Origin: Bacteroidales bacterium UBA1256
GTDB taxonomy: Bacteria; Bacteroidota; Bacteroidia; Bacteroidales; Paludibacteraceae
Assembly (NCBI GenBank): GCA_002308195.1
Contig: DBVU01000026.1
Location: 7,527 to 18,493 of the forward strand
Length of the DNA: 10,967 nucleotides
Direction of reading: 5' to 3'
The notes below the pieces were generated by a model. It was not told the origin of the DNA, searched no databases, and saw only the letters and a list, made by a program, of their open reading frames with translations. Of the stretch, positions 167 through 10,800 are shown one piece after another; position 1 is the first letter of the stretch; the number at the start of each line of letters is the position of its first letter. A program made the position numbers and the translations under genes.

Positions 167-673
167 CTATTTTGTTTCCGTTCCTAAAACGGTATATATC
201 TTCTCTCCTCGACGGATATACAAATGTCCGTCACGGAGTATCTTTCTGCTCCCCACTTTCGATTTTCCACTCTCCACATCCTCTATTCCTTCAGTCTTGT
301 CTCTCTCCAGATAAGTCGCGGTATAGATAGCGTCGTCCGTGGCAATAACTACTTTCGGCGTCCAGCCGCAAAAAACGTACTTATACTGTTCGTCCGTTTC
401 CCGTTGCGGCATCGCTCCATTATAGCTTGGTAACGTCTCTCGGTCCACCATCGACGATTGCAATAGTTCGCCATCCCAGTTGACAAAATCGATAACGTAT
501 TGCTCACACCGGACATACCCGATGCGCTCGGCATAATCCGGCAGAGCCGACTGATAATATGCTTTCTTGCCGCACGGCACATAGATGGTGTCAATCACAT
601 TCGCGTACGCATGCCACGGCTCTTCGCCCACAGCATATTCCGCCAATTCACCATCTCCGCTGAGGGTCAGTAC
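167..673 (-). repeat. 507-nt direct repeat, copy 1 (3' end of 979-aa gene)
   Basis: This stretch encodes the last 168 residues of the 979-aa protein. It aligns without gaps to the last 168 residues of the neighbouring 434-aa protein, with about 31 residue differences by eye. DNA identity is also high, for example around 446-590 against 3399-3545. The two copies are direct repeats about 2.9 kb apart. Confidence 0.9.
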
Positions 674-3106
674 GCCGTCACAAACATTCAATTCCCAATT
701 CACTCCTTCGCCACACGTACCGGAAACGGCAAAAGGAATATCTTCTACGATGGTATAGTTATTCCACCCATCCGCGTATCGATAGATTTCTGCCAAACCG
801 CATGGTATATGAAGGTTGATTCCTGACTTATTAGTGAAATTATTCGGCCAAACAGGAATATCGCCTTCCCAACGCACAAATATATCTGCTAAATCTTCAC
901 AAGATTCAAAAAGACGCGAACCTATGTTGGTTAGCGAAACCGGCAACGAAGCAGATTGCAAAGACGCACACCCTCCAAAAGAGAAATTGCCTGTGGATGT
1001 TACTCCCTCAGGAATCGTCACAGATGACAAACCACTGCAATGAGCGAAAGCACAGTTTCCGATAGATGTCACTTCTCCAAAGGAAGATATAGAGTTTATG
1101 CTCGTACAGCCATAAAACGCGTACGGCTTTATTTCGCTGATTCCCTGCGGGATAGATAGTTCTGTCAGCAATGTGCCCTTGAGATAAATATTTCCGTCCC
1201 CTTTGTTTGCCGCATTTCCATTCTTGTAGAATGGATAGCTATAAGAATCACCATAACTTATTCCGCACCAAGCCGCTAGGTCGGCGATGTGCACCGATTC
1301 CATTTTACGGCATGCATAAAAAGCGTTTGTACCGATGGATGTAACACCCTTGCCTATTGTGACGGAAGTCAATTTTGTGCATTGACTAAATGCACTATTC
1401 CCTATATTTGTTATTCCATTGCCAATAATAGCTGTTTTAATCGCGCCGCGGACGGCACTCCACGCCTGTTTATTTGTCATGGCACCCGTGCCGCTCACAG
1501 TCAGCACACTGTCGCAACTGAGCGTCCATGTTACATTCGCTTCTTGACCTTCGGCTCCACATTCACCATAAATAACTTCAGAAATCCCGCAATTTTTCCA
1601 GCCGTTTGCCGAATGGTAAATATCGTACGTGCCACATGGCACATGCAGATAACAAGGAGAGGCAGATACCAAATTATTCCAATTGGGGATCTGAGACGCG
1701 GAAGTCCATGCTACAGTTAGGTGATGTAGATTGTCACACAAGTTCCACACTCCTGGTCCCAAACTACTTACGCTCGAAGGAATGGAAACGGACCGCAAAC
1801 TACCGCAATTCATAAATGCCATTTGACCAATGGTCTGCAGTCCTGAGCCCAAAATCAGATATTGTAAACTGGGACATTTGTAGAAGGCTAATTCCACGAT
1901 CTCGGTAACCCCGTTGGGAATGACTACCGAATCCAACTTAGCACAATCGTAGAAGGCTTGCTTCTTAATCGTCTTAACACCGTTACCGATAGTGACAGAT
2001 GTCAAATTTTCGCACTGAGCGAAGGCTATTTTGCCTAGTGTTGTCACGTTCGGACCCATGGTCACCTTTTTTATCGAAGACCGATAGTCGTTCCATGGAA
2101 TATCTTCGTATCTACTCCAATCAGCCATCGCACCGGTACCGTAAACACTTAGGACTCCATCGCAGTCAAAGACCCATTTCACATCATCTCCACTGGCTCC
2201 GCAAGTACCGCTACGCACTCCGTCACCCGCTACGATCAACTGCGTTCCCCAGCCCTTGGCTCTGTACGCATCCGAGGTGCCACAAGGCACATGAATCTTC
2301 GCATTGGTAGTACCGGCTACTAAAGTATTATAATCGTCCCATTGGGGAATAGAAGTAGTCCATTGCACATAGAGATCCGTCAAACTGACACAATCCTCAA
2401 ACACCTCTCTTCCCCAACTTTTAACGGTGCTGGGAATAGTCATTGTCGTAAACGAACAGCCAAGAAATGCTTCTTGATTAAGTCTGGTTATATGGGTTGG
2501 AATAGTAAAATCCGTCATCGGACACCTAACGAAACATCCCACAGGAATAATGGTAATACCGGTTCCAAACGTGGCATTTTTTAAGTTAGAACAATCCTGA
2601 AATATATAAGACCCCAGATTGACTGCATTACTGGGTATAGAAATGGATGTCAAACTTGTGCACTCTCGAAAAGCATAATTCCCGATATTAGTAACGCTAC
2701 TGGGGATGGTGATGCTGGATAGAGACGAACATTTCGCAAAGCCATAGAACGAAATGAGCGTAAGGGTATTGGGCAAAGACACCGAAGTCAGGTTGTAGAG
2801 GTTATAGAACGCAAAATTGCCTAATTCCGTCACACCGCTATTGACTACAAGCGTTTTGATATACGACCTATGGATATCCCAGGGAGAAGGAGAGAGTGAA
2901 CTAGTGAAATAACTATAATCTTCCATCGCGCCTGTTCCATTAATCGTCAGCACACCGGTACTGGTATTTAGAGTATAGGTAACATTATCTCCATTCTCTC
3001 CGCAGTTTCCGGTATAAGTAGCAGCATTGACCGTACCGCCAAGCGCATACACGCCTAGCACCAACACGTATAATACTCTATATAAATACTTGCCGTTAAC
3101 AGTCAT
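167..3106 (-). CDS. BspA-like leucine-rich-repeat secreted surface protein (979 aa)
   Basis: A signal peptide spans about residues 1-28 (basic YLYR, hydrophobic VLYVLVLGVYALGG, probable cleavage after VNA) and has no lipobox cysteine. The mature protein is built of modules. Each opens with a cysteine-containing cap (GNCG/GTCG, then a VLT.xGTGAM-like core) at about residues 33, 299, 515 and 796. The first three continue into LRR_5/BspA-type repeats with the pattern IP.xVT.IG..AF..C..L. They close with a strand plus an IHVPCG/LHVPCG/LHIPCG element (about 271, 488, 766). The fourth module has no LRRs. It leads into an InlB-B/Flg_new-like domain (about 869-933, FVNWDGELLQ to GWTPKV..ATDDA.YTATY), then a hydrophilic linker and a short C-terminal motif (LYIRRGEKIYTVLG). 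That motif resembles type IX secretion-type C-terminal signals of Bacteroidales, so export to the outer surface is inferred. BspA homologues bind host proteins or other bacteria; the ligand here is unknown. It starts 6 nt after the 434-aa paralogue and is presumably cotranscribed. Confidence 0.9.
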   Translation of the reverse strand: MTVNGKYLYRVLYVLVLGVYALGGTVNAATYTGNCGENGDNVTYTLNTSTGVLTINGTGAMEDYSYFTSSLSPSPWDIHRSYIKTLVVNSGVTELGNFAFYNLYNLTSVSLPNTLTLISFYGFAKCSSLSSITIPSSVTNIGNYAFRECTSLTSISIPSNAVNLGSYIFQDCSNLKNATFGTGITIIPVGCFVRCPMTDFTIPTHITRLNQEAFLGCSFTTMTIPSTVKSWGREVFEDCVSLTDLYVQWTTSIPQWDDYNTLVAGTTNAKIHVPCGTSDAYRAKGWGTQLIVAGDGVRSGTCGASGDDVKWVFDCDGVLSVYGTGAMADWSRYEDIPWNDYRSSIKKVTMGPNVTTLGKIAFAQCENLTSVTIGNGVKTIKKQAFYDCAKLDSVVIPNGVTEIVELAFYKCPSLQYLILGSGLQTIGQMAFMNCGSLRSVSIPSSVSSLGPGVWNLCDNLHHLTVAWTSASQIPNWNNLVSASPCYLHVPCGTYDIYHSANGWKNCGISEVIYGECGAEGQEANVTWTLSCDSVLTVSGTGAMTNKQAWSAVRGAIKTAIIGNGITNIGNSAFSQCTKLTSVTIGKGVTSIGTNAFYACRKMESVHIADLAAWCGISYGDSYSYPFYKNGNAANKGDGNIYLKGTLLTELSIPQGISEIKPYAFYGCTSINSISSFGEVTSIGNCAFAHCSGLSSVTIPEGVTSTGNFSFGGCASLQSASLPVSLTNIGSRLFESCEDLADIFVRWEGDIPVWPNNFTNKSGINLHIPCGLAEIYRYADGWNNYTIVEDIPFAVSGTCGEGVNWELNVCDGVLTLSGDGELAEYAVGEEPWHAYANVIDTIYVPCGKKAYYQSALPDYAERIGYVRCEQYVIDFVNWDGELLQSSMVDRETLPSYNGAMPQRETDEQYKYVFCGWTPKVVIATDDAIYTATYLERDKTEGIEDVESGKSKVGSRKILRDGHLYIRRGEKIYTVLGTETK
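242..277 (-). repeat. GYNRRRR heptanucleotide tract in the 979-aa BspA-like gene
   Basis: On the coding strand there are five consecutive 7-nt units, four of which fit GYNRRRR (for example GTGGAGA and GCAGAAA; one unit begins with A). They encode VESGKSKVGSRK (residues 944-955), the hydrophilic linker between the InlB-B-like domain and the C-terminal motif. The position is exactly equivalent to the tract in the 434-aa paralogue, but the units have diverged. Confidence 0.65.
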
Positions 3107-3112
3107 AATGCT

Positions 3113-3619
3113 CTATTTCATTTCCGTCCCAAGAACGGTATATATTTTCTCTCCTCGACGGATATACAGCACACCTTCGCGAAGAATCTTCTGACTCTTG
3201 ACTCTTGACTCTCCGCTCTCAACATCTTCTATCGCCTCAAACTTGTCTCTCTGAAGATAAGTAGCCGTATAAGTAGCATCGTCTGTAGCCAATTCTACTT
3301 TCGGTGTCCAACCGATGAAAGTATATTTGTATAGTTCGTCGGTTTCTTTTTCCGGCATCGCACCATTGTAGCTGGGCAGCGTTTCTCTGTCCACCAGCGA
3401 CGATTGCAATAGTTCGCCATCCCAATTGACAAAGTCAATGATATATTGCTCGCACCAGTCATACCCGATACGCTCTGCATAGTCCGGCAGAGCCGACTGA
3501 TAATACGCCTTCTTGCCGCAGGGTACAATGATGGTGTCAATCAGGTCTGCATGTTCATGCCAAGGTTCTTCGCCCGACGCATATTCCGCCAATTCTCCTT
3601 CTCCGCTGATGGTCAGCGT
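3113..3619 (-). repeat. 507-nt direct repeat, copy 2 (3' end of 434-aa gene)
   Basis: This is the partner of the repeat at 167-673. It covers the LRR-less final cap, the InlB-B/Flg_new-like domain, the heptad-tract linker and the C-terminal motif. Recombination between the copies would delete most of the 979-aa gene or swap LRR bodies onto a constant tail. Confidence 0.9.
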
Positions 3620-4417
3620 ACTATCGCAGAGAATGTAGGTAAGGTTGTTGCCATTCGCGCCACAATTTCCGCTTGACATATATACAGGTTGAAGAGTGTA
3701 ATGCTTCCAGCCAAAAGTTTTTTCGTATAAATCTATTGCATTACACGGCACATGTAGGGTAATGTCGGTTTGAGGATTTTTGTTGGTAATATCTGCCCAA
3801 TTGGGTATATTCTCCGTCCATGAAACAAATATATCTGTCAAGGCATTGCAACCATAGAAGGCAGCCCAACCTACATCCGTTACCTTTTTCGGTATAGTTA
3901 TTGAGGCCAAACTGCTACATTTTTGGAATGTACAAGATTTAATCTCGGAGAGGTTGTTGCTCAGCGTTACCGAGGTTAACATACTACACCCATAAAAAGC
4001 ATATGCAGCGAGGTTTGTAACGCTAGGTATTGCCATCGATGTTAATTTTGAGCACGCTCGGAACGATGCACTTCCAATTTGGGTAACCGAATTCGGTATT
4101 GAGCAAGAACTCATATTAGAACAACCGTAGAAAGCACGGTTGCCAATAGACGTTACTTGGTCCCCGACTGCAACAGATGTGATAGATTCGCGATAACTAT
4201 ACCAGGGTACATCTTCCTTATTCTCCCAATCCGCCATTGCACCACTACCACTAATAGTCAATCTGCCTGTCGCGTCGTTAAGTGTCCAAGTCAAATTATT
4301 TCCATCTGCACCGCAGTTTCCGGTATAGGTAGCCGCGCTAACCGTACCGCCAAGCGCACACACGCCCAGTAGCAACACGCACATTAACCTATATAAATAC
4401 CCGTTTCTAGCGGCCAT
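3113..4417 (-). CDS. BspA-like leucine-rich-repeat secreted surface protein (434 aa)
   Basis: This is the first gene of the minus-strand operon and a shorter paralogue of the next gene. The N-terminus (YLYRLMCVLLLGVCALGG, cleavage likely after VSA near residue 28) is almost the same signal peptide. Residues 31-245 form one complete BspA module: cap (GNCGADG, LTISGSGAMADW), about five LRR_5 repeats with AF.GCS..L spacing, and an LHVPC closing element near 221. A second cap (about 250-275) has no LRRs and runs into the InlB-B/Flg_new-like domain (about 325-387) and the C-terminal motif LYIRRGEKIYTVLG. The last 168 residues match the 979-aa protein at roughly 80% identity without gaps. The ATG at 4417 follows a good Bacteroidetes promoter by 26 nt, with no Shine-Dalgarno sequence. 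Surface display through a type IX-like route is inferred from the C-terminus. The family is certain, but the ligand is not known. Confidence 0.9.
   Translation of the reverse strand: MAARNGYLYRLMCVLLLGVCALGGTVSAATYTGNCGADGNNLTWTLNDATGRLTISGSGAMADWENKEDVPWYSYRESITSVAVGDQVTSIGNRAFYGCSNMSSCSIPNSVTQIGSASFRACSKLTSMAIPSVTNLAAYAFYGCSMLTSVTLSNNLSEIKSCTFQKCSSLASITIPKKVTDVGWAAFYGCNALTDIFVSWTENIPNWADITNKNPQTDITLHVPCNAIDLYEKTFGWKHYTLQPVYMSSGNCGANGNNLTYILCDSTLTISGEGELAEYASGEEPWHEHADLIDTIIVPCGKKAYYQSALPDYAERIGYDWCEQYIIDFVNWDGELLQSSLVDRETLPSYNGAMPEKETDELYKYTFIGWTPKVELATDDATYTATYLQRDKFEAIEDVESGESRVKSQKILREGVLYIRRGEKIYTVLGTEMK
3188..3223 (-). repeat. GYNRRRR heptanucleotide tract in the 434-aa BspA-like gene
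   Basis: On the coding strand there are five consecutive units, all fitting GYNRRRR, including two identical GTCAAGA units. On the plus strand this contains three perfect copies of TGACTCT (3192-3212). It encodes VESGESRVKSQK (residues 399-410) immediately before the C-terminal motif. This is the cleanest of the four tracts in the window. Confidence 0.75.
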
Positions 4418-4420
4418 ACT

Positions 4421-4444
4421 GCACCAAATTTATAATTTGGGTGC
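4421..4444 (-). promoter_or_regulatory. Inverted repeat between -7 box and ATG of the BspA-like operon
   Basis: The core is a perfect 7-bp inverted repeat (CCAAATT / AATTTGG, 3-nt spacer) at 4424-4440. It extends to GCAC/GTGC on both sides with a single unpaired C. It begins at the last base of the -7 box and ends 3 nt before the start codon, so it fills the whole leader. It could be an operator overlapping the transcription start, or a 5'-terminal mRNA hairpin next to the initiation site. Neither role is proven. Confidence 0.55.
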
Positions 4445-4475
4445 AAAGGTACAACTTTTTTTTGATATACGCAAG
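4444..4475 (-). promoter_or_regulatory. Bacteroidetes-type promoter of the BspA-like operon
   Basis: On the minus strand there is a CTTG (4472-4475, -33 region), a 20-nt spacer and TACCTTTG (4444-4451, -7 region, exact match to TAnnTTTG). The spacer contains an A8 tract flanked as TC-A8-GTTG. The -7 box ends 26 nt before the ATG at 4417. Transcription probably starts around 4437-4440, inside the palindrome. Confidence 0.8.
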
Positions 4476-4696
4476 AGTTTCTTTGAAAAAATCGTTTCTT
4501 TTTCATAAACTCGAGACTTTATTGCGGAGAAGCCAATTGACTTTTGGCTTCGAAAAGATGGAGAATGTCCAGTGAACATTCGAATAGAGTGGCAGGCGGG
4601 GAGCCTAAGCCGACCGAGAGTATATCGTGACAATCACGTATCCTACCTATACCTATAATATATAAAATATATTATCCAGTGATTTTGAATTTTTCA
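4476..4696. other. Intergenic block with several small inverted repeats, no gene recognised
   Basis: This lies between the two divergent promoters. Visible structures are an 8-bp stem GAAGCCAA/TTGGCTTC with a 7-nt loop (4529-4551), a 6-bp stem GAATGT/ACATTC (4563-4581), a 5-bp stem CGTGA/TCACG with a 3-nt loop (about 4626-4638), and an AT-only palindrome (4655-4675). The stretch 4520-4640 is visibly richer in G+C than the AT-rich flanks. I do not recognise a known RNA family (no RNase P, tmRNA or SRP core). The 67-codon minus-strand reading frame here runs through the promoter and is not credible. Confidence 0.5.
4655..4675. repeat. AT-only perfect palindrome upstream of the tsaD promoter
   Basis: Two perfect 9-bp arms, ATAATATAT and ATATATTAT, are separated by AAA. 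It ends 21 nt upstream of the -33 box of tsaD. It could be a protein site, an UP-like AT-rich element or chance in AT-rich DNA. A similar AT-only palindrome lies upstream of the uvrA promoter. Confidence 0.5.
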
Positions 4697-4728
4697 TTTG
4701 CACAATTCAAAAAAAAGCAGTAATTTTG
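4697..4728 (+). promoter_or_regulatory. Bacteroidetes-type promoter of tsaD
   Basis: TTTG at 4697-4700, a 20-nt spacer and TAATTTTG at 4721-4728 match both boxes of the Bacteroidetes consensus. The spacer holds TC-A8-G at the same offset as in the other two promoters of the window. Transcription should start a few bases after 4728, which rules out the TTG at 4726 as the start codon of tsaD because it lies inside the -7 box. Confidence 0.8.
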
Positions 4729-4737
4729 CGCTCGATT

Positions 4738-5784
4738 TTGGAAAAGAAAGTAGTCATATTAGCTATCGAATCCAGTTGCGATGACACGTCCGCAGCTGTC
4801 ATCATTGACGGCATTTTGCGTAGTAATGTAATCGCTTCGCAGAAGGTGCACGAAGAGTATGGAGGCGTAGTTCCCGAACTCGCCAGTCGTGCTCATCAGC
4901 AGAATATCGTCCCCGTAGTAGATACTGCCCTCAAACGTGCGGGCGTTGCGGCACAAGACCTCTCCGCTATCGCTTTCACACGCGGTCCCGGATTACTTGG
5001 CTCGTTGCTCGTTGGCACTTCGTTCGCCAAAGGCATGGCTCTCTCGCTCCGCATTCCGCTGATTGATGTCAACCATCTGCAAGGACACGTACTCGCACAT
5101 TTCGTAGAAGACGGAACAGGACTCAACCATCCGTCCCTGCCTTTCTTGTGTTTGCTTGTTTCCGGAGGAAACAGCCAGATAGTTTTAGTCAAGGCGTACA
5201 ATGATATGCAAATCATCGGTCAGACCATCGACGATGCGGCGGGCGAGGCGTTCGACAAGTGTGCCAAAGTGCTTGGATTGCCTTATCCCGGTGGCCCGTG
5301 GATTGACAAACTAGCCAAACTCGGCGACGCCGGCAAATATCCGTTCGCTAAACCTCAAATTGCGGGTTACGACTACTCGTTCTCCGGACTCAAGACATCG
5401 TTCCTCTACACCTTGCGTGATATGCTTCGCGAACGCAATCTCGAGACCATCGACCAACTGGCTGAACAAGTCCCAAATTTGCGAGAAGACATGTGCGCGT
5501 CGCTGCAAGCGACGATTATCGATATTCTGATGCGCAAGCTGAAGAAAGCTGCGCAGGATTTGGGTATTCGTCAAGTGGCGGTCGCAGGTGGAGTAAGTGC
5601 CAATAGCGCCTTGCGACAAGCTTTCGTCGATTATGGCAAACGCTACCACTGGAATGTGTTTATTCCGCCCTTCTCTTTCACCACAGACAATGCTGCTATG
5701 GTCTGCCAGGCGGGCTATTTCAAGTATCTGGATGGTGATTTCTGCGCAATTGATGAAGTGCCGTATGCCAAAACAACCATCTGA
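4738..5784 (+). CDS. tsaD: tRNA N6-adenosine threonylcarbamoyltransferase TsaD
   Basis: With TsaB and TsaE in the bacterial KEOPS-like complex, TsaD transfers the threonylcarbamoyl group from TC-AMP to A37 of tRNAs reading ANN codons (t6A), in the cytoplasm. The 348-aa product has the whole ASKHA-fold Kae1/YgjD signature. This includes ILAIESSCDDTS (7-18), YGGVVPELASRAH (41-53), FTRGPGLLGSLLVG (80-93), the metal-site histidines in NHLQGHVLAH (His113, His117), the phosphate loop LVSGGNSQ, the PGGP and YDYSFSGLKTS segments, VAGGVSAN, and FTTDNAAM with the metal ligand Asp317. Length is normal for the family. The start is unusual: no in-frame ATG or GTG lies near the N-terminus. The frame can begin only at TTG 4738 (or a rarer ATT at 4735), because TTG 4726 lies in the promoter. 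The mRNA would be leaderless or nearly so. The next gene follows after 3 nt. Confidence 0.95.
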   Translation: MEKKVVILAIESSCDDTSAAVIIDGILRSNVIASQKVHEEYGGVVPELASRAHQQNIVPVVDTALKRAGVAAQDLSAIAFTRGPGLLGSLLVGTSFAKGMALSLRIPLIDVNHLQGHVLAHFVEDGTGLNHPSLPFLCLLVSGGNSQIVLVKAYNDMQIIGQTIDDAAGEAFDKCAKVLGLPYPGGPWIDKLAKLGDAGKYPFAKPQIAGYDYSFSGLKTSFLYTLRDMLRERNLETIDQLAEQVPNLREDMCASLQATIIDILMRKLKKAAQDLGIRQVAVAGGVSANSALRQAFVDYGKRYHWNVFIPPFSFTTDNAAMVCQAGYFKYLDGDFCAIDEVPYAKTTI

Positions 5785-5787
5785 TTT

Positions 5788-6396
5788 ATGCAAAAAGGAG
5801 AACTGCGACATATACTGGCACCATACGCAGATGTTATCATTTTCATGATAACACTCCTGATTGTCAACTATGTATGGAAATACACGGTTATCGGCGATGA
5901 ATTTGGCGACCAAGTCACCTGGTTTGACTTAGACATAACCGCACCGTTCGAATGGATGTCTTGCCACGTAGCGGCCGTTGTTTACTGGCTCTTATCTCTT
6001 TGCCGCGACACAGTCCATTTGGTAGGAGAACACTCCATCCGATTCGATTCCGGTACTGGCACAACCATCATCTGGGGTTGTTCCGGACTCAAACAGATGT
6101 TTATCTGGCTGTGCCTTATGCTGACCGTTCGCAGCGGGGCCAAAGGATACAAAACATGGCTGCACAAACTCTGGTTTATTCCTTTCGGATGGTTGTGCTG
6201 CCATGCATTTAATATACTCCGTATATTCTTGATTGCCTTAGCCATAGAGCACCATCCGGATTGGTTCCATGTGCTCCACGACTACATTTTCAAGTATCTT
6301 TTCTATGGAATGATGTTCGCCCTCTGGGTTTGGTTTGTCGAATCCATTAGGGGCGTTGCTGAATCTTCTCCAGCAAGCGAAGAATCCAACGTTTAG
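5788..6396 (+). CDS. exosortase/archaeosortase family transmembrane protein
   Basis: The 202-aa product is an integral membrane protein with about five hydrophobic segments (roughly 12-30, 57-72, 94-115, 127-152, 166-186). It carries the three residues typical of the exosortase/archaeosortase superfamily, each in the expected context: Cys98 in IIWGCSGLKQ, Arg145 in HAFNILRIFLIA and His164 in FHVLHDYIFKY. Exosortases are thought to be membrane transpeptidases that cut a short C-terminal sorting signal (motif, TM helix, basic tail) from secreted proteins and pass them to a further carrier or surface glycan. The gene starts 3 nt after tsaD and is presumably cotranscribed. Its 3' end overlaps the convergent antiporter gene by 50 nt. 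The sequence does not tell me the Xrt subtype. No protein in this window ends in an exosortase-type signal, so its substrate must lie elsewhere. The acidic/serine tail (ESSPASEESNV) is encoded in the overlap. Confidence 0.83.
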   Translation: MQKGELRHILAPYADVIIFMITLLIVNYVWKYTVIGDEFGDQVTWFDLDITAPFEWMSCHVAAVVYWLLSLCRDTVHLVGEHSIRFDSGTGTTIIWGCSGLKQMFIWLCLMLTVRSGAKGYKTWLHKLWFIPFGWLCCHAFNILRIFLIALAIEHHPDWFHVLHDYIFKYLFYGMMFALWVWFVESIRGVAESSPASEESNV

Positions 6397-8212
6397 TTGC
6401 GCTCACCATACTCCATGTCATGCTAGCAGGAGTCTGGTCTGTATGTAGAATGTCTGCCTTTGGCAGACCTGCTTCTTGTTCCGGCAGAACGAGCAGATAA
6501 CTATGGTCGTTAAAAAATCGACCAAGCATGTCCGGTGTCTGTTCGAACAGCGGGTTATAACTCGGCGTTGACGGACGTGCACCAATCATCACAATCAGAT
6601 CATCGGATTTCATCTGTTTGGCTATCATCAGTACGTCTTCCCAATCTTCCATTCGGCGATACGAAGCACGCAAGAATTTACCTTTGCGCCGGCAGAAAGC
6701 CTGCAAAGCCAATTGTGTGTCTGCATTAGCAAAGAATATCACTTTCGCGCCAATCTGGCTGCTCAGACGACGAATCAAGCCGAAACAGGAGATAAAATCA
6801 TGCTCTTTCTCAGCATAACGCGGCACGGCCACCAGTATTCGCGAAATCGTATTGATAGGCTGAGCTGCATGATAGACTATTGAGGCTTGGCCTGTACTGT
6901 CAAGCAATTGTTTGGCTTCCTGCCAGTCGGCTTCGCACGAAAATGACGGCTCATGCAGTTCGCTCAGGTTGCTCAATTCCTCTAGGTCGCTCAACCTATT
7001 CTCATTCACACTCATAACGCGCCAACTGTCATCACGCTTGTCAGCCTCCAGACGCGATTCTTCTTGCAGCGCCAAGCGTTTGGCTGCATATTCAGTCACA
7101 AACGAAGCAGTCGTACAGAGTATCAGAATCATGATGACAGAGGCATTCAGAATGGCGTCATCAAAGATGCCTGTCTGGTAACCTATTGTGACGATTGCCA
7201 GTGTTCCCGCTGCAGTAGCGTGCGTCAAGCCGAACATCAGTTGCCGTTCCAGACCTTGCAAGTGGAAACTGACTTGTGCCAACCAAGCGGCAATCCATTT
7301 GCCCGCCAGTTTGGTGCCAATCATCACCAGAGCCAGGACTATCGTCATCCAACCGGTCCATACCACGCGAATATCAATCATCATTCCCACACCCAATAGG
7401 AAAAGCGGAACGAAGATATTGTTTCCAACAAAACTGATGCGTTGCATCAGAGGGCTGCGATTCGGCACCAGTCTATTGAGCGCAACGCCACAAAGGAAGG
7501 CTCCTAAAATACCTTCTAGCCCCGCCCAATCGGCTAGAAAAGCCGACAGACTCATCAAAAGCATCACTACCACAAATCCGCTCGTCGGATCGGTCCAACG
7601 CTTGAAAAAACGTTTCGCCAACCAAGGGAAGCACAGCGTAATAGCAATTATCGTCAGCACAGCACGGCCTAAAATACCGAGCATGCTAATTTCCGTTTCT
7701 TGTATCAGATTGCTTCTGAGTGCCGCCAAAACCAACAGGGCCAAAGTGATGGTTAGCATCGTTCCGCCTACGGCGATATTCGCTGCAGCATTCTTCTGCA
7801 CCCCGTAGCGACTGATGATAGGATAGGTCATCAGCGTATGGCTGCCGTACATTGCGCCCAGCAACGCACAAGTGGTCCAATCGTATCCTAACAGCCAACT
7901 GGTCAGCAAACCCAGGCCGAATGGCACAATAAACGCATACAATCCATAGATAACCGCACTACGACGATGCTGACTAAAATCGTTGATATCGATTTCGATA
8001 CCCGCTTGCAGCATGATATATAGCATTCCCATCTTGCCCAGCGTCTGAATAGTCACACTCTGATCAATCAGGTGCAGTCCGTGCGGACCTATCAAAACGC
8101 CCACAAGAATAAAGCCCACAATGCTTGGGATACGCACTTTGCGGCTCACCATTGGCACTAAAAGAATGATGGCAAGCGCTAGGGCGATGATGGCAATAGA
8201 ATCGGTTATCAT
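6347..8212 (-). CDS. CPA2-family cation:proton antiporter with C-terminal USP-like domain
   Basis: The 621-aa product has about 12-13 transmembrane segments in residues 1-375. They start with the family motif VGFILVGVLIGPHGL (about 32-46) and include IMLQAGIEID (66-75), the GAFLCGVALNR segment (237-247) and PLFLLGVGMMIDI (269-281). This is the Na+/H+ exchanger (Pfam Na_H_Exchanger, KefB/NapA-like) fold, so it should exchange a monovalent cation for protons across the inner membrane. Ion specificity cannot be read from the sequence, and I do not see a NapA-type Asp-Asp pair. Instead of the RCK/TrkA-N domain of KefC, a soluble region (about 455-595) resembles a universal stress protein domain. 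A low-complexity Leu/Ser/Glu linker (about 407-419) joins the two. The ATG overlaps the uvrA stop (ATGA), implying one operon and coupled translation. The 3' end overlaps the exosortase gene tail to tail. Confidence 0.86.
   Translation of the reverse strand: MITDSIAIIALALAIILLVPMVSRKVRIPSIVGFILVGVLIGPHGLHLIDQSVTIQTLGKMGMLYIMLQAGIEIDINDFSQHRRSAVIYGLYAFIVPFGLGLLTSWLLGYDWTTCALLGAMYGSHTLMTYPIISRYGVQKNAAANIAVGGTMLTITLALLVLAALRSNLIQETEISMLGILGRAVLTIIAITLCFPWLAKRFFKRWTDPTSGFVVVMLLMSLSAFLADWAGLEGILGAFLCGVALNRLVPNRSPLMQRISFVGNNIFVPLFLLGVGMMIDIRVVWTGWMTIVLALVMIGTKLAGKWIAAWLAQVSFHLQGLERQLMFGLTHATAAGTLAIVTIGYQTGIFDDAILNASVIMILILCTTASFVTEYAAKRLALQEESRLEADKRDDSWRVMSVNENRLSDLEELSNLSELHEPSFSCEADWQEAKQLLDSTGQASIVYHAAQPINTISRILVAVPRYAEKEHDFISCFGLIRRLSSQIGAKVIFFANADTQLALQAFCRRKGKFLRASYRRMEDWEDVLMIAKQMKSDDLIVMIGARPSTPSYNPLFEQTPDMLGRFFNDHSYLLVLPEQEAGLPKADILHTDQTPASMTWSMVSATKRWILRLLEKIQQRP
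6452..6468 (+). terminator. Weak candidate terminator hairpin after the tsaD-exosortase operon
   Basis: A perfect 7-bp stem GTCTGCC/GGCAGAC with a TTT loop begins 55 nt past the exosortase stop codon, inside the C-terminal coding region of the opposing antiporter gene. The plus-strand sequence after it is only mildly T-rich (CTGCTTCTTGTT), so intrinsic termination is doubtful. It is recorded because no other terminator is visible for this transcript. Confidence 0.25.
6959..6994 (-). repeat. Imperfect 18-nt tandem repeat in the antiporter linker
   Basis: On the coding strand two 18-nt units both begin TTGAGC and end GAA, with 13 of 18 bases matching. They encode LSDLEE and LSNLSE. They lie in the hydrophilic linker between the membrane domain and the USP-like domain. 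This is another case of in-frame short-repeat growth in an interdomain region of this genome. Confidence 0.55.
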
Positions 8213-10800
8213 ATATATTGTCCGGTTATGCTATTTTTGTTTTTACGTAGGTCTGCTACTGTTCCTTCGGCTACAATCTTGCCGCCGCCGCGACCGCCTT
8301 CCGGCCCAAGATCGATGATCCAGTCACAAGCACGGATTACATCCGTGTTATGCTCAATTATCACTACGGTATTTCCCTTCTCCACCAGTCGCTTCAAAAC
8401 GCCTAGTAGCACTCTAATATCTTCGAAATGCAGACCCGTAGTGGGTTCATCCAGTATGTACAATGTCTTTCCTGTCGATGGACGCGATAGTTCGGTGGCT
8501 AGTTTGATTCGCTGACTCTCTCCTCCGGAGAGACTGGTCGAAGACTGACCTAGTTTGATATACCCCAGACCGACATCCTGAATTGTCTTGATCTTACGCA
8601 GAATAGTAGGTTGCGACTCAAAGAACTCAACCGCCTGATTGACAGTCATATCCAGCACTTCGCCGATGGTTTTTCCCTTGAATCGCACTTCTAGTGTTTC
8701 GCGGTTATATCGTTGGCCACCGCACGCCTCGCACGGCACGTACACATCGGGCATAAAATGCATCTGAATGGTCTTAAATCCATTGCCCAGACACTCCTCG
8801 CATCGCCCGCCATGCATATTGAATGAGAATCGTCCGGATTTCCATCCGCGAATCTTTGATTCTGGTAGTTGCGCAAATAACTCACGTATGTCGGTAAAAA
8901 CGGTCGTATAAGTGGCAGGATTGCTTCGCGGCATACGCCCGATAGGCGATTGGTCGACATTAATCACTTTGTCGATAAATTCCACGCCCTCAATATCTTT
9001 GTATGCTAGCGGAGCCTGTTTGCTGCGATAGAATCGCTGGCTGAGCAGCGGATAAAGTGTCTGGTTGATCAGACTGGATTTGCCCGAACCGCTCACACCG
9101 GTCACGCAGACCATTTTGCCGAGCGGAATCTTGACCGTCACGTTCTTCAGGTTATTGCCCGTACAACCGCTCAGAGTCAGCCATTTATCGGCCGTGAAGG
9201 CCTCAGCCGCAGCATTCTCGGTCACCACTTTTTCGCCCTTTAGATACTGAGCCGTCAGCGTATCTGTCTTGAGCAAATCGTCAGGTGTGCCGCTGAACAG
9301 CACTTTTCCACCCAATCGACCGGCTTTCGGACCAATATCTACTAGCCAATCGGCCTGTCGCATGATGGCCTCGTCGTGTTCTACCACAATAACCGAATTA
9401 CCCAAATCGCGCAACTCCTTCAGACTGTTGATAAGTCGCTGATTATCACGCTGATGGAGGCCAATAGAAGGCTCATCCAGAATATACAGTACATTCACCA
9501 AACGCGAACCTATTTGCGTCGCCAAACGAATACGTTGGCTCTCTCCTCCGGAGAGACTCTCGCTGCTACGGTTTAGACTCAGATAACTCAAACCCACCGA
9601 CTGCATAAAGCGCAAACGAGCGCAAATTTCCTTCATTATCGGCTCGGCTATCGCAGCCTGTTTGGTCGACAGTTTGCCGCCCAACGACTCGAGTGTAGCA
9701 AGCAAAACGTCTATGTCCATAGACGCCAAGTCGGAAATATTGTATTGGTCGATGCGATAACTCAGTGCCTCTTTGCTCAACCGTTTGCCGTGACATTCGG
9801 GGCATTCCACCCACTCTTCTTTCTCATCTTCCTCATCGGTCTCGGCCATCTGTTGCAACTGAGTGAACCAGTCATCCGCTTGCATCGCTTCATCAAACTC
9901 CTCGCCTCTAGCCTCTAACCCTTCGCCTTTCACCTTTCCCAATCCTTTGCAGCACGGGCACCAACCGGATGGACTGTTAAAAGAGAACGTATGCGGTGCA
10001 GGCTCAGCATAGCTGAGACCCGTGACAGGGCACATCAGATTGCGACTTAAGAAACGTATCTTATCGCCTTCGGCGACCATCATAATGCCGTTTCCCTGAG
10101 TCATCGCTTTGTCCACCGATTGACGCAATCGACGCAAATCTTCCTCTAGCCCTTCGCCCCTAACCTTTAATCTGTCTACCACCACTTCGATAGTGTGCGT
10201 TTTGTAGCGGTCCACTTTCATGCCCGCCACCACTTCTTGCACTTCGCCATCCACACGCACATACATAAATCCTTTTTTACGTATGGTCTCAAACAGCTCT
10301 TTGTAGTGACCTTTTCGGCCGCTTACCATCGGTGCCAACAGCAGAATTTTCTTGCCCGCATAGTCGCGAACCAACAAATCTATGATTTGATCGTCGGTAT
10401 AATGCACCATTTTCTCGCCACTCAGGTACGAATAAGCCTCGCCCGCTCTGGCAAACAGCAAACGGAGAAAATCGTACACTTCGGTCACCGTACCTACTGT
10501 CGAACGTGGATTGCGACTGGTGGTCTTCTGGTCAATGGAGATAACCGGACTCAGACCGCTGATTTTATCTACATCTGGCCGTTGCATCTGGCCGATAAAG
10601 CCACGCGCATACGACGAGAACGTATCCATATAGCGTCTCTGTCCTTCGGCAAAAATCGTATCAAAGGCTAGCGAGGACTTGCCACTGCCGCTCAAACCGG
10701 TTATCACCACCAGTTTCTTGCGAGGCATACTCACGCTGATATTCTTCAGGTTATGCACCCGAGCACCCAAAATCTCTATTTTCCCGTTATCTTTTGCCAT
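8209..10800 (-). CDS. uvrA: Excinuclease ABC subunit UvrA (863 aa, shortened insertion domain)
   Basis: UvrA is the dimeric damage-sensing ATPase of nucleotide excision repair; it loads UvrB at lesions. Two ABC modules are complete: Walker A GLSGSGKS (35-42) and GVSGSGKS (568-575), signatures LSGGE (416-420, 757-761), and Walker B LYILDEP (438-444, 780-786). The UvrB-binding region is present (about 120-250, [12 protein letters not shown] to [10 protein letters not shown]), arguing for UvrA1 rather than UvrA2. The C-terminal zinc module is intact (Cys667, 670, 690, 693). The N-terminal one is not: Cys257 is followed by Thr260 where a second Cys is usual, although Cys281 and Cys284 remain. The insertion domain between CPCC and CPEC is only about 48 residues, against roughly 130 in E. 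coli, which explains the short length (about 940 aa is typical). I chose ATG 10800. A longer frame from 10869 would start upstream of the -7 promoter box. It shares a 4-nt ATGA overlap with the antiporter gene. Confidence 0.96.
9899..9940 (-). repeat. GYNRRRR heptanucleotide tract in uvrA, copy 2
   Basis: On the coding strand there are six consecutive 7-nt units, five of them fitting GYNRRRR (for example GTGAAAG, GCGAAGG and GCTAGAG). They encode about residues 288-301 ([14 protein letters not shown]), right after the CPCC motif, at the start of the shortened insertion domain. The length, 42 nt, is both 6 x 7 and a multiple of 3, so the frame is kept. Confidence 0.7.
10144..10171 (-). repeat. 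GYNRRRR heptanucleotide tract in uvrA, copy 1
   Basis: On the coding strand there are four units, three of them fitting GYNRRRR (GTTAGGG, GCGAAGG, GCTAGAG). They encode LKVRGEGLE (residues 211-219) at a turn of the UvrB-binding region, just after EVVVDR. It shares 22 of 26 bases and the same reading phase with the second uvrA tract (KVRGEGLE against KVKGEGLE). Confidence 0.65.

What the first reader, a model, noticed from the sequence alone, without database searches (positions are those of the whole stretch)
3188..10171. A degenerate heptanucleotide repeat (GYNRRRR) has grown in frame at four sites in three genes
Four tracts (242-277, 3188-3223, 9899-9940, 10144-10171) read on the coding strand as 20 consecutive-in-tract 7-nt units, of which 17 fit GYNRRRR. 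A random heptad fits with a chance of about 1 in 128. All four sit at interdomain linkers or loops: before the C-terminal motif of two surface proteins and at two loops of UvrA. Unit sequences differ between tracts but keep the 7-nt phase. This suggests a mobile or slippage-driven repeat that is tolerated only where the protein is flexible. Period-7 repeats are known in other bacteria (for example STRR in cyanobacteria). I do not know a described family with this consensus in Bacteroidales.
Basis: partly seen in the sequence, partly recalled or inferred. Interest (0 to 1): 0.72.

Follow-up and report, generated by a model that had tools for sequence, protein, structure and literature searches.

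The report
Seven-base repeats colonising genes and gaps
Gut bacteria related to this one carry many short arrays of seven-base units between genes and in flexible loops of proteins; the same spot often carries different units in different species, while arrays within one genome tend to resemble each other.

Summary
In detail: on the coding strand 17 of 20 units in the four tracts fit GYNRRRR, and runs of three or more occur 3 times in the six genes against a mean of 0.0055 after codon shuffling. Two tracts (3188-3223, 9899-9940) are strong alone; two (242-277, 10144-10171) are weak. The consensus is not the family: 1.95 Mb of 14 related genomes holds 261 period-7 tracts (0 in Markov shuffles) with 104 unit classes; 45 of 259 fit GYNRRRR. 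Tracts are about 15 times denser between genes than inside. Inside genes they recur at the same sites, mostly with different units: 61 of 276 orthologous sites against 22 of 4014 random coding sites. Units are more alike within a genome, and when close together. In the closest species pair, three tracts differ by exactly 7, 7 and 28 nt, others are absent or replaced by an unrelated heptad array; most indels near tracts are not multiples of 7. Best reading: 7-nt slippage plus ectopic copying, filtered by tolerance. Heptad excess, and its variation between relatives, is known; dialects and loop re-occupation I did not find in print.

The parts
242..277 (-). Weak heptad tract (4 of 5 units fit GYNRRRR) in the linker before the C-terminal motif of BspA-type LRR protein 1; peptide VESGKSKVGSRK
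   Evidence: lag-7 score 6.5, below the threshold of 8
3188..3223 (-). Strong heptad tract (5 of 5 units) at the same linker of the paralogous LRR protein 2; peptide VESGESRVKSQK
   Evidence: the same tail is in homologue P0001 (93% identical)
9899..9940 (-). Strong heptad tract (5 of 6 units) in UvrA loop 2; peptide [14 protein letters not shown]
   Evidence: 19 of 51 aligned UvrA genes pass the lag-7 threshold in this loop
10144..10171 (-). Weak heptad tract (3 of 4 units) in UvrA loop 1; peptide [10 protein letters not shown]
   Evidence: lag-7 score 4, but L004 and L026 have strong GGTTAGAG tracts at the same place (15.5 and 22.5)
167..3106 (-). BspA-type leucine-rich-repeat surface protein 1 (979 aa)
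   Evidence: PF13306, E 5e-109
3113..4417 (-). BspA-type leucine-rich-repeat surface protein 2 (434 aa)
   Evidence: PF13306, E 8e-32
8209..10800 (-). UvrA (863 aa from the ATG at 10800; the listed ORF opens at GTG 10869)
   Evidence: PRK00349 and TIGR00630 over their cut-offs

Best explanation
The tracts are local examples of a genome-wide population of degenerate period-7 repeats that turns over quickly in this Bacteroidales lineage. Shown: the period is 7 while the unit sequence is largely free; in the closest species pair three tracts differ by whole units, and whole tracts are present or absent, or swapped for tracts of another unit, between alignable flanks; units are more alike within a genome, and more alike when nearby. 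Inferred: (1) a chance pair of similar heptads is extended by strand slippage with a 7-nt step (loops of this size are expected to escape mismatch repair; general knowledge, not tested); (2) tracts also receive sequence from other tracts in the same cell by ectopic template switching or short-patch gene conversion, giving the per-genome dialect; (3) selection keeps them in operon spacers, often just after stop codons, and in protein loops where stop-free changes of whole frames are tolerated. They act as tolerated, selfish-like mutational elements rather than as a dedicated function.
For: Period 7: 261 segments against 0 in third-order Markov sequence; periods 6 and 8 give 11 and 45. Whole-unit steps: differences of exactly 7, 7 and 28 nt at three tracts of the G020/G089 pair. 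Gain or loss: a 42-nt and a 72-nt tract of G020 are missing in G089. Replacement: a GGTTAGAGG-type array in G020 faces a CTAAACA-type array in G089 between alignable flanks. Same site, mostly different unit: 61 of 276 orthologous sites hold a tract, against 22 of 4014 random coding sites; units there are alike (>=6 of 7) in 13% (8 of 61), against 7% of unrelated cross-genome pairs and 15.6% of same-genome pairs. Dialect: 14.8% within against 6.1% between genomes, maximum 8.4% in 1000 label permutations, with homologous flanks and pairs closer than 10 kb removed. Distance: near pairs 25.6% against 16.4% after permuting positions, 0 of 500 as high. Copying: a 27-nt composite at 5 places of G013 within 2 mismatches, one of them UvrA loop 3; shared unit order above 20 permutations for k=21, 24 and 28 (120, 79, 20 pairs against maxima 99, 70, 17). 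Tolerance: 0.93 per kb between genes, 0.06 within; 64 of 404 co-directional gaps against 2 of 66 divergent gaps; coding units have a sense stop in 22%, letter-shuffled 44%.
Against: Most indels near tracts are not multiples of 7: 2 of 23 on the G020:C5/G089:C117 alignment, against 5 of 150 elsewhere there, and 0 of 5 in a second pair (G090/G091); alignments through replaced tracts are ragged, but the 7-nt step rests on three clear cases. No copying event was observed directly; for k=32 shared order is within the permuted range (3 against mean 1.6, maximum 4), and AATCACM arrays occur in many orders, so most tracts are not clonal copies. Units at orthologous sites are about twice as alike as unrelated ones, so some are inherited. 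The near-pair permutation did not remove homologous flanks; the binned table of that call did, and falls from 24% (0.5-3 kb) to 14% (>50 kb). Orthologous-site comparisons are counted from both sides and UvrA weighs heavily; random sites were 12-24 codons, the compared intervals vary. Periods 8, 9 and 11 are also above shuffles (45, 41, 69) and are not explained. MAG assemblies can collapse repeats.
Confidence: 0.55

Rival explanations
1. Pure in-place slippage. Each tract grows and drifts on its own; likeness within a genome comes from species-specific slippage preferences or local base composition, with no copying between sites.
For: Exact 7-nt and 28-nt differences; heptanucleotides were the most abundant long simple repeats in most genomes and a 7-nt polymerase contact was proposed (Mrazek 2007 as told in the introduction of PMC4679880); several unit types coexist in each genome.
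Against: Replacement of a whole array by an unrelated unit between alignable flanks, likeness falling with distance, a shared composite at unrelated sites, and the dialect persisting among genomes of similar G+C.
Confidence: 0.25
2. Short mobile elements. Heptad arrays are pieces of, or passengers beside, small palindromic repeats that insert in frame into genes, like Rickettsia palindromic elements.
For: UvrA loops of several relatives hold GGGAGGG/CCCTCCC palindromes and other repeats; one 72-nt heptad tract lies next to such a palindrome; three 20-kb pieces of G020 give 77, 47 and 51 matches in G089, many of 40-100 nt on many contigs.
Against: No constant flank or end was seen in the tracts I looked at; they vary by unit number and unit sequence, which an element with fixed ends does not predict. 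I ran no dedicated search for target duplications.
Confidence: 0.1
3. Selected function. The tracts in operon spacers and gene ends act as binding sites, RNA signals or stop cassettes, and those in proteins as useful linkers.
For: Concentration at stop codons (median distance 1 nt), G-rich sense strand in co-directional gaps (81 against 34 of 121), a stop in 76% of units there.
Against: The stop content is close to what the letters of the units give when shuffled (70%, 95% range 64-76%); coding and intergenic orientation differ at least partly because a tract with stops ends an ORF; presence and units are mostly not conserved at orthologous coding sites or in the close pair.
Confidence: 0.05

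Closest known systems
Over-represented heptanucleotide simple repeats in bacteria (Mrazek 2007, not seen itself; as told in PMC4679880 and PMC4692102)
   Same: Period 7, slippage proposed as the cause
   Different: Here units are degenerate, differ by genome and by site, and many lie in frame inside conserved genes
GGGAATC repeats of Xanthomonas and GGGGA(T/C)T repeats of Nostoc (PMC4692102, passages); STRR of cyanobacteria (recalled)
   Same: 7-nt tandem units, largely intergenic; [quoted passage not shown]
   Different: Each of those is built on one G-rich unit; here 104 unit classes in 14 genomes and unrelated units at the same site
TAACTGA direct repeats of Beggiatoaceae, cyanobacteria and five Bacteroidetes (PMC4679880; introduction, Bacteroidetes section and passages read)
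   Same: Heptamer arrays, also in Bacteroidetes including Paludibacter, near starts and stops; some intergenic arrays there include other heptamers and are absent in close relatives
   Different: One fixed unit; [quoted passage not shown]
Rickettsia palindromic elements (PMC10969869, passages)
   Same: Short repeats inserted in frame in unrelated genes
   Different: RPEs are elements of about 150 bp in defined families; heptad tracts have no fixed length or sequence

Membership tests
Heptanucleotide simple sequence repeats | Tandem period of 7 nt beyond chance | tested here: met
   261 against 0 in Markov sequence; 59, 21 and 23 against 0, 0 and 2
Heptanucleotide simple sequence repeats | Copy number changes by whole units | tested here: inconclusive
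   clear differences of 7, 7 and 28 nt at three tracts, but 2 of 23 and 0 of 5 indels near tracts are multiples of 7 in the two pairs
   45 of 259 fit
STRR / TAACTGA / GGGGATT repeats | One or a few fixed unit sequences | tested here: not met
   104 unit classes among 261 tracts
Rickettsia palindromic elements | In-frame presence in genes, absent from orthologues | tested here: met
   215 of 276 orthologous sites lack a tract, 76 of these shorter by >=5 residues
Rickettsia palindromic elements | Element of roughly constant length with family-wide sequence | tested here: not met
   variable length and unit
Slippage through lost mismatch repair | MutS1 missing in the lineage | tested here: not met
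   MutS1 over the cut-off in 18 of 19 genomes (12 relatives, 7 from the order); G006 has only a weak match; MutL not tested

The most novel reading that the evidence does not exclude
The lineage has a genome-wide concerted heptad system: arrays exchange sequence in trans inside a cell, so that each genome keeps its own unit dialects, and arrays with unrelated units replace one another at standing landing sites (operon spacers and a few protein loops such as those of UvrA). The period is inherited while the sequence is not, possibly through a dedicated error-prone or template-switching polymerase activity with a 7-nt register.
Probability: 0.25. Interest if true: 0.8.

Novelty: new variant of a known kind. 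Interest (0 to 1): 0.55.

Why it matters
It gives a natural data set in which the period of a repeat is conserved while its sequence is not, so the cause of the long-noted excess of 7-nt repeats in bacteria can be tested. It also suggests that conserved repair and surface genes repeatedly receive repeat-derived peptides at the same loops, a route by which non-coding repeats supply new protein sequence.

Tried and rejected
Rejected: GYNRRRR as a universal consensus; a single unit order for AATCACM arrays (45 matches in 13 of 26 genomes, many orders); three-frame stop cassette (stop content is near that of letter-shuffled units); general loss of MutS1; the BspA linker as a special heptad site (5 of 45 C-terminal linkers pass at lag 7, one of them the window's, and 0 of 45 control stretches; enriched but a minority). 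The built-in control (pattern read backwards) is often as high as the pattern itself and is not independent, because GYG-type arrays match both readings. Order-wide: 25 of 59 other genomes of the order carry the pattern. A lag-7 scan of 18 pieces (266 kb) of order genomes found 0 tracts, but 17 of the 18 came from genomes already without pattern hits, so the zero is biased; 30 more distant loci (L051-L080) gave 23 against 2 shuffled. Literature: ten searches, eight on heptads and two on Rickettsia elements; those on Bacteroidetes, Bacteroides or Bacteroidales returned only PMC4679880 or nothing. Subscription journals are not held; Mrazek 2007 itself was not seen.

Full report
Check of the observation. 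Runs of at least three perfect units number 3, against means of 0.003-0.007 in Markov sequences and 0.0055 in codon-shuffled genes. Consensus-free lag-7 scoring supports 3188-3223 and 9899-9940 and does not by itself support 242-277 or 10144-10171. The genes are two BspA-type LRR proteins, TsaD, an exosortase-family protein, a CPA2-type antiporter and UvrA.

Is it genome-wide? The window's own genome is not held, so I used relatives. The 4-unit GYNRRRR pattern occurs in 22 of 22 relative genomes, 3 to 156 matches each with overlapping matches counted; my own independence estimate is about 0.02 per genome. A consensus-free scan of 1,952,533 bases from 14 genomes found 261 period-7 segments and none in third-order Markov sequence. 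Periods 6, 8, 9 and 11 gave 11, 45, 41 and 69, also above the shuffles and unexplained; the 157 at 14 and 82 at 21 I take to be mostly harmonics. In the loci the counts were 59 against 0 (window and L001-L030), 21 against 0 (L031-L050) and 23 against 2 (L051-L080). The 261 tracts have 104 unit classes; 45 of the 259 with a placed context fit GYNRRRR in some rotation or strand, against 10% of random 7-mers and 8% of letter-shuffled units. The period, not the consensus, is the conserved property.

Where they sit. By a simple ORF caller, 153 tracts lie between genes (0.933 per kb) and 108 within genes (0.060 per kb). Per kb they are commonest in co-directional gaps (1.24), then convergent (0.85) and divergent (0.28); the median distance to a facing stop codon is 1 nt. 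Of co-directional gaps of 30-200 nt, 64 of 404 hold one; of divergent gaps 2 of 66. Coding tracts have few stop codons on the sense strand (22% of units, letter-shuffled 44%). Intergenic tracts in co-directional gaps are G-rich in the sense strand (81 against 34 of 121); part of this contrast is ascertainment, since a tract with stops ends an ORF.

Same loop, different unit. UvrA loops 1, 2 and 3 pass the lag-7 threshold in 10, 19 and 10 of 51 aligned genes (the window and 50 relatives; L035 is truncated before loops 1 and 2), while each of lags 5, 6, 8, 9, 10 and 11 passes in at most 2. The units differ: GGTTAGAG, GGTTACGGGTGACG, AGCCATC, AAATTAA, AGTCGAA, GTACAAA and others. Across 108 coding tracts, 276 comparisons with an orthologue could be judged (29 more had unaligned flanks): 61 orthologues hold a tract at the site and 215 do not, 76 of these being shorter by at least 5 residues. 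Random coding sites of 12-24 codons hold one in 22 of 4014 cases (lag 6: 6, lag 9: 11). Where both have one, units are alike (>=6 of 7) in 13%, against 7% for unrelated cross-genome pairs and 15.6% within a genome: some inheritance, mostly turnover. The comparisons are counted from both sides and UvrA weighs heavily.

Dialects. Within one genome (one contig each, so binning errors are not the cause; chimeric contigs are not excluded) units are alike in 14.8% of pairs, between genomes in 6.1%; the largest of 1000 label permutations was 8.4%. Pairs of one genome closer than 10 kb and pairs with a shared 10-mer in their flanks were left out. The result holds for genomes of similar G+C, for intergenic tracts alone and for coding tracts alone. 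Likeness falls with distance, 24% at 0.5-3 kb to 14% beyond 50 kb, and permuting positions within genomes reached the observed near value in 0 of 500 (that permutation kept pairs with homologous flanks). Multi-unit order is shared more than after permuting units for k=21, 24 and 28, not for k=32 (20 permutations). One composite, GTTAGCCAAAAGCCAATAGCCAATAGC, is at five places in G013 within two mismatches, two of them exact on one contig with unrelated flanks, one of these UvrA loop 3; in 4 of 26 genomes overall.

Turnover between close species. G020 and G089 (uvrA 90.9% alike) align over about 87 kb in 13 pieces of 81-95% identity. At one gene end the tract differs by exactly one 7-nt unit; another differs by 28 nt; a third by 7 nt. 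A 42-nt and a 72-nt tract are missing in G089. At one intergenic site a GGTTAGAGG array in G020 faces a CTAAACA array in G089 between alignable flanks. Against a simple picture: on the longest shared contig only 2 of 23 indels near tracts are multiples of 7 (5 of 150 elsewhere), and in a second pair, G090/G091, 0 of 5. In that second pair one tract is conserved in length.

Mechanism. Shown: period-7 excess, three whole-unit differences, gain or loss, replacement, dialect and distance effect. Inferred: slippage in 7-nt steps makes and resizes tracts; ectopic template switching or gene conversion moves sequence between tracts; selection decides where they stay. General loss of MutS1 is not the cause (over the cut-off in 18 of 19 genomes). 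Rivals and their tests are given above.

What is known. Heptanucleotide excess and a polymerase-contact explanation are attributed to Mrazek 2007 in the introduction of PMC4679880 (read) and in passages of PMC4692102. [quoted passage not shown] PMC4679880 describes TAACTGA arrays, a few of them in Bacteroidetes (section read), some beside other heptamers and some absent in close relatives with the same gene order, another precedent. Rickettsia palindromic elements are the closest parallel for in-frame repeats (passages of PMC10969869). I did not find the per-genome dialect, the distance effect or the re-occupation of the same protein loop in print in the ten searches listed under Tried and rejected.

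Noticed in passing
UvrA loop 2, window 9840-9960 and L051-L080: Many outgroup UvrA genes have about 70 more residues here (probably part of the UvrA insertion domain; name recalled); the Paludibacteraceae-type genes have a short variable linker instead.
   Followed up: partly
UvrA loops of L002, L007, L012, L026, L037, L045 and others: The same loops also hold GGGAGGG/CCCTCCC palindromes and other repeat types (for example a 9-nt repeat in L013 loop 3), so UvrA is a landing place for several repeat families.
   Followed up: partly
G020 and G089 contigs: Three 20-kb pieces of G020 give 47 to 77 matches in G089, many of 40-100 nt and spread over many contigs; these genomes are rich in small interspersed repeats of unknown kind.
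   Followed up: no
L177-L180 (G024), UvrA and a 336-aa protein: The peptides STDRFTDRIQNTD and STDRFADRIQNTD occur in two different genes, a possible dispersed in-frame element.
   Followed up: no
14 genomes: Periods 8, 9 and 11 are also above Markov shuffles (45, 41 and 69 segments), so repeats of other unit lengths exist beside the heptads.
   Followed up: no
window 5788-6396: Exosortase-family protein (TIGR04178 over its cut-off; best specific profile XrtX, below its cut-off) directly downstream of TsaD.
   Followed up: no
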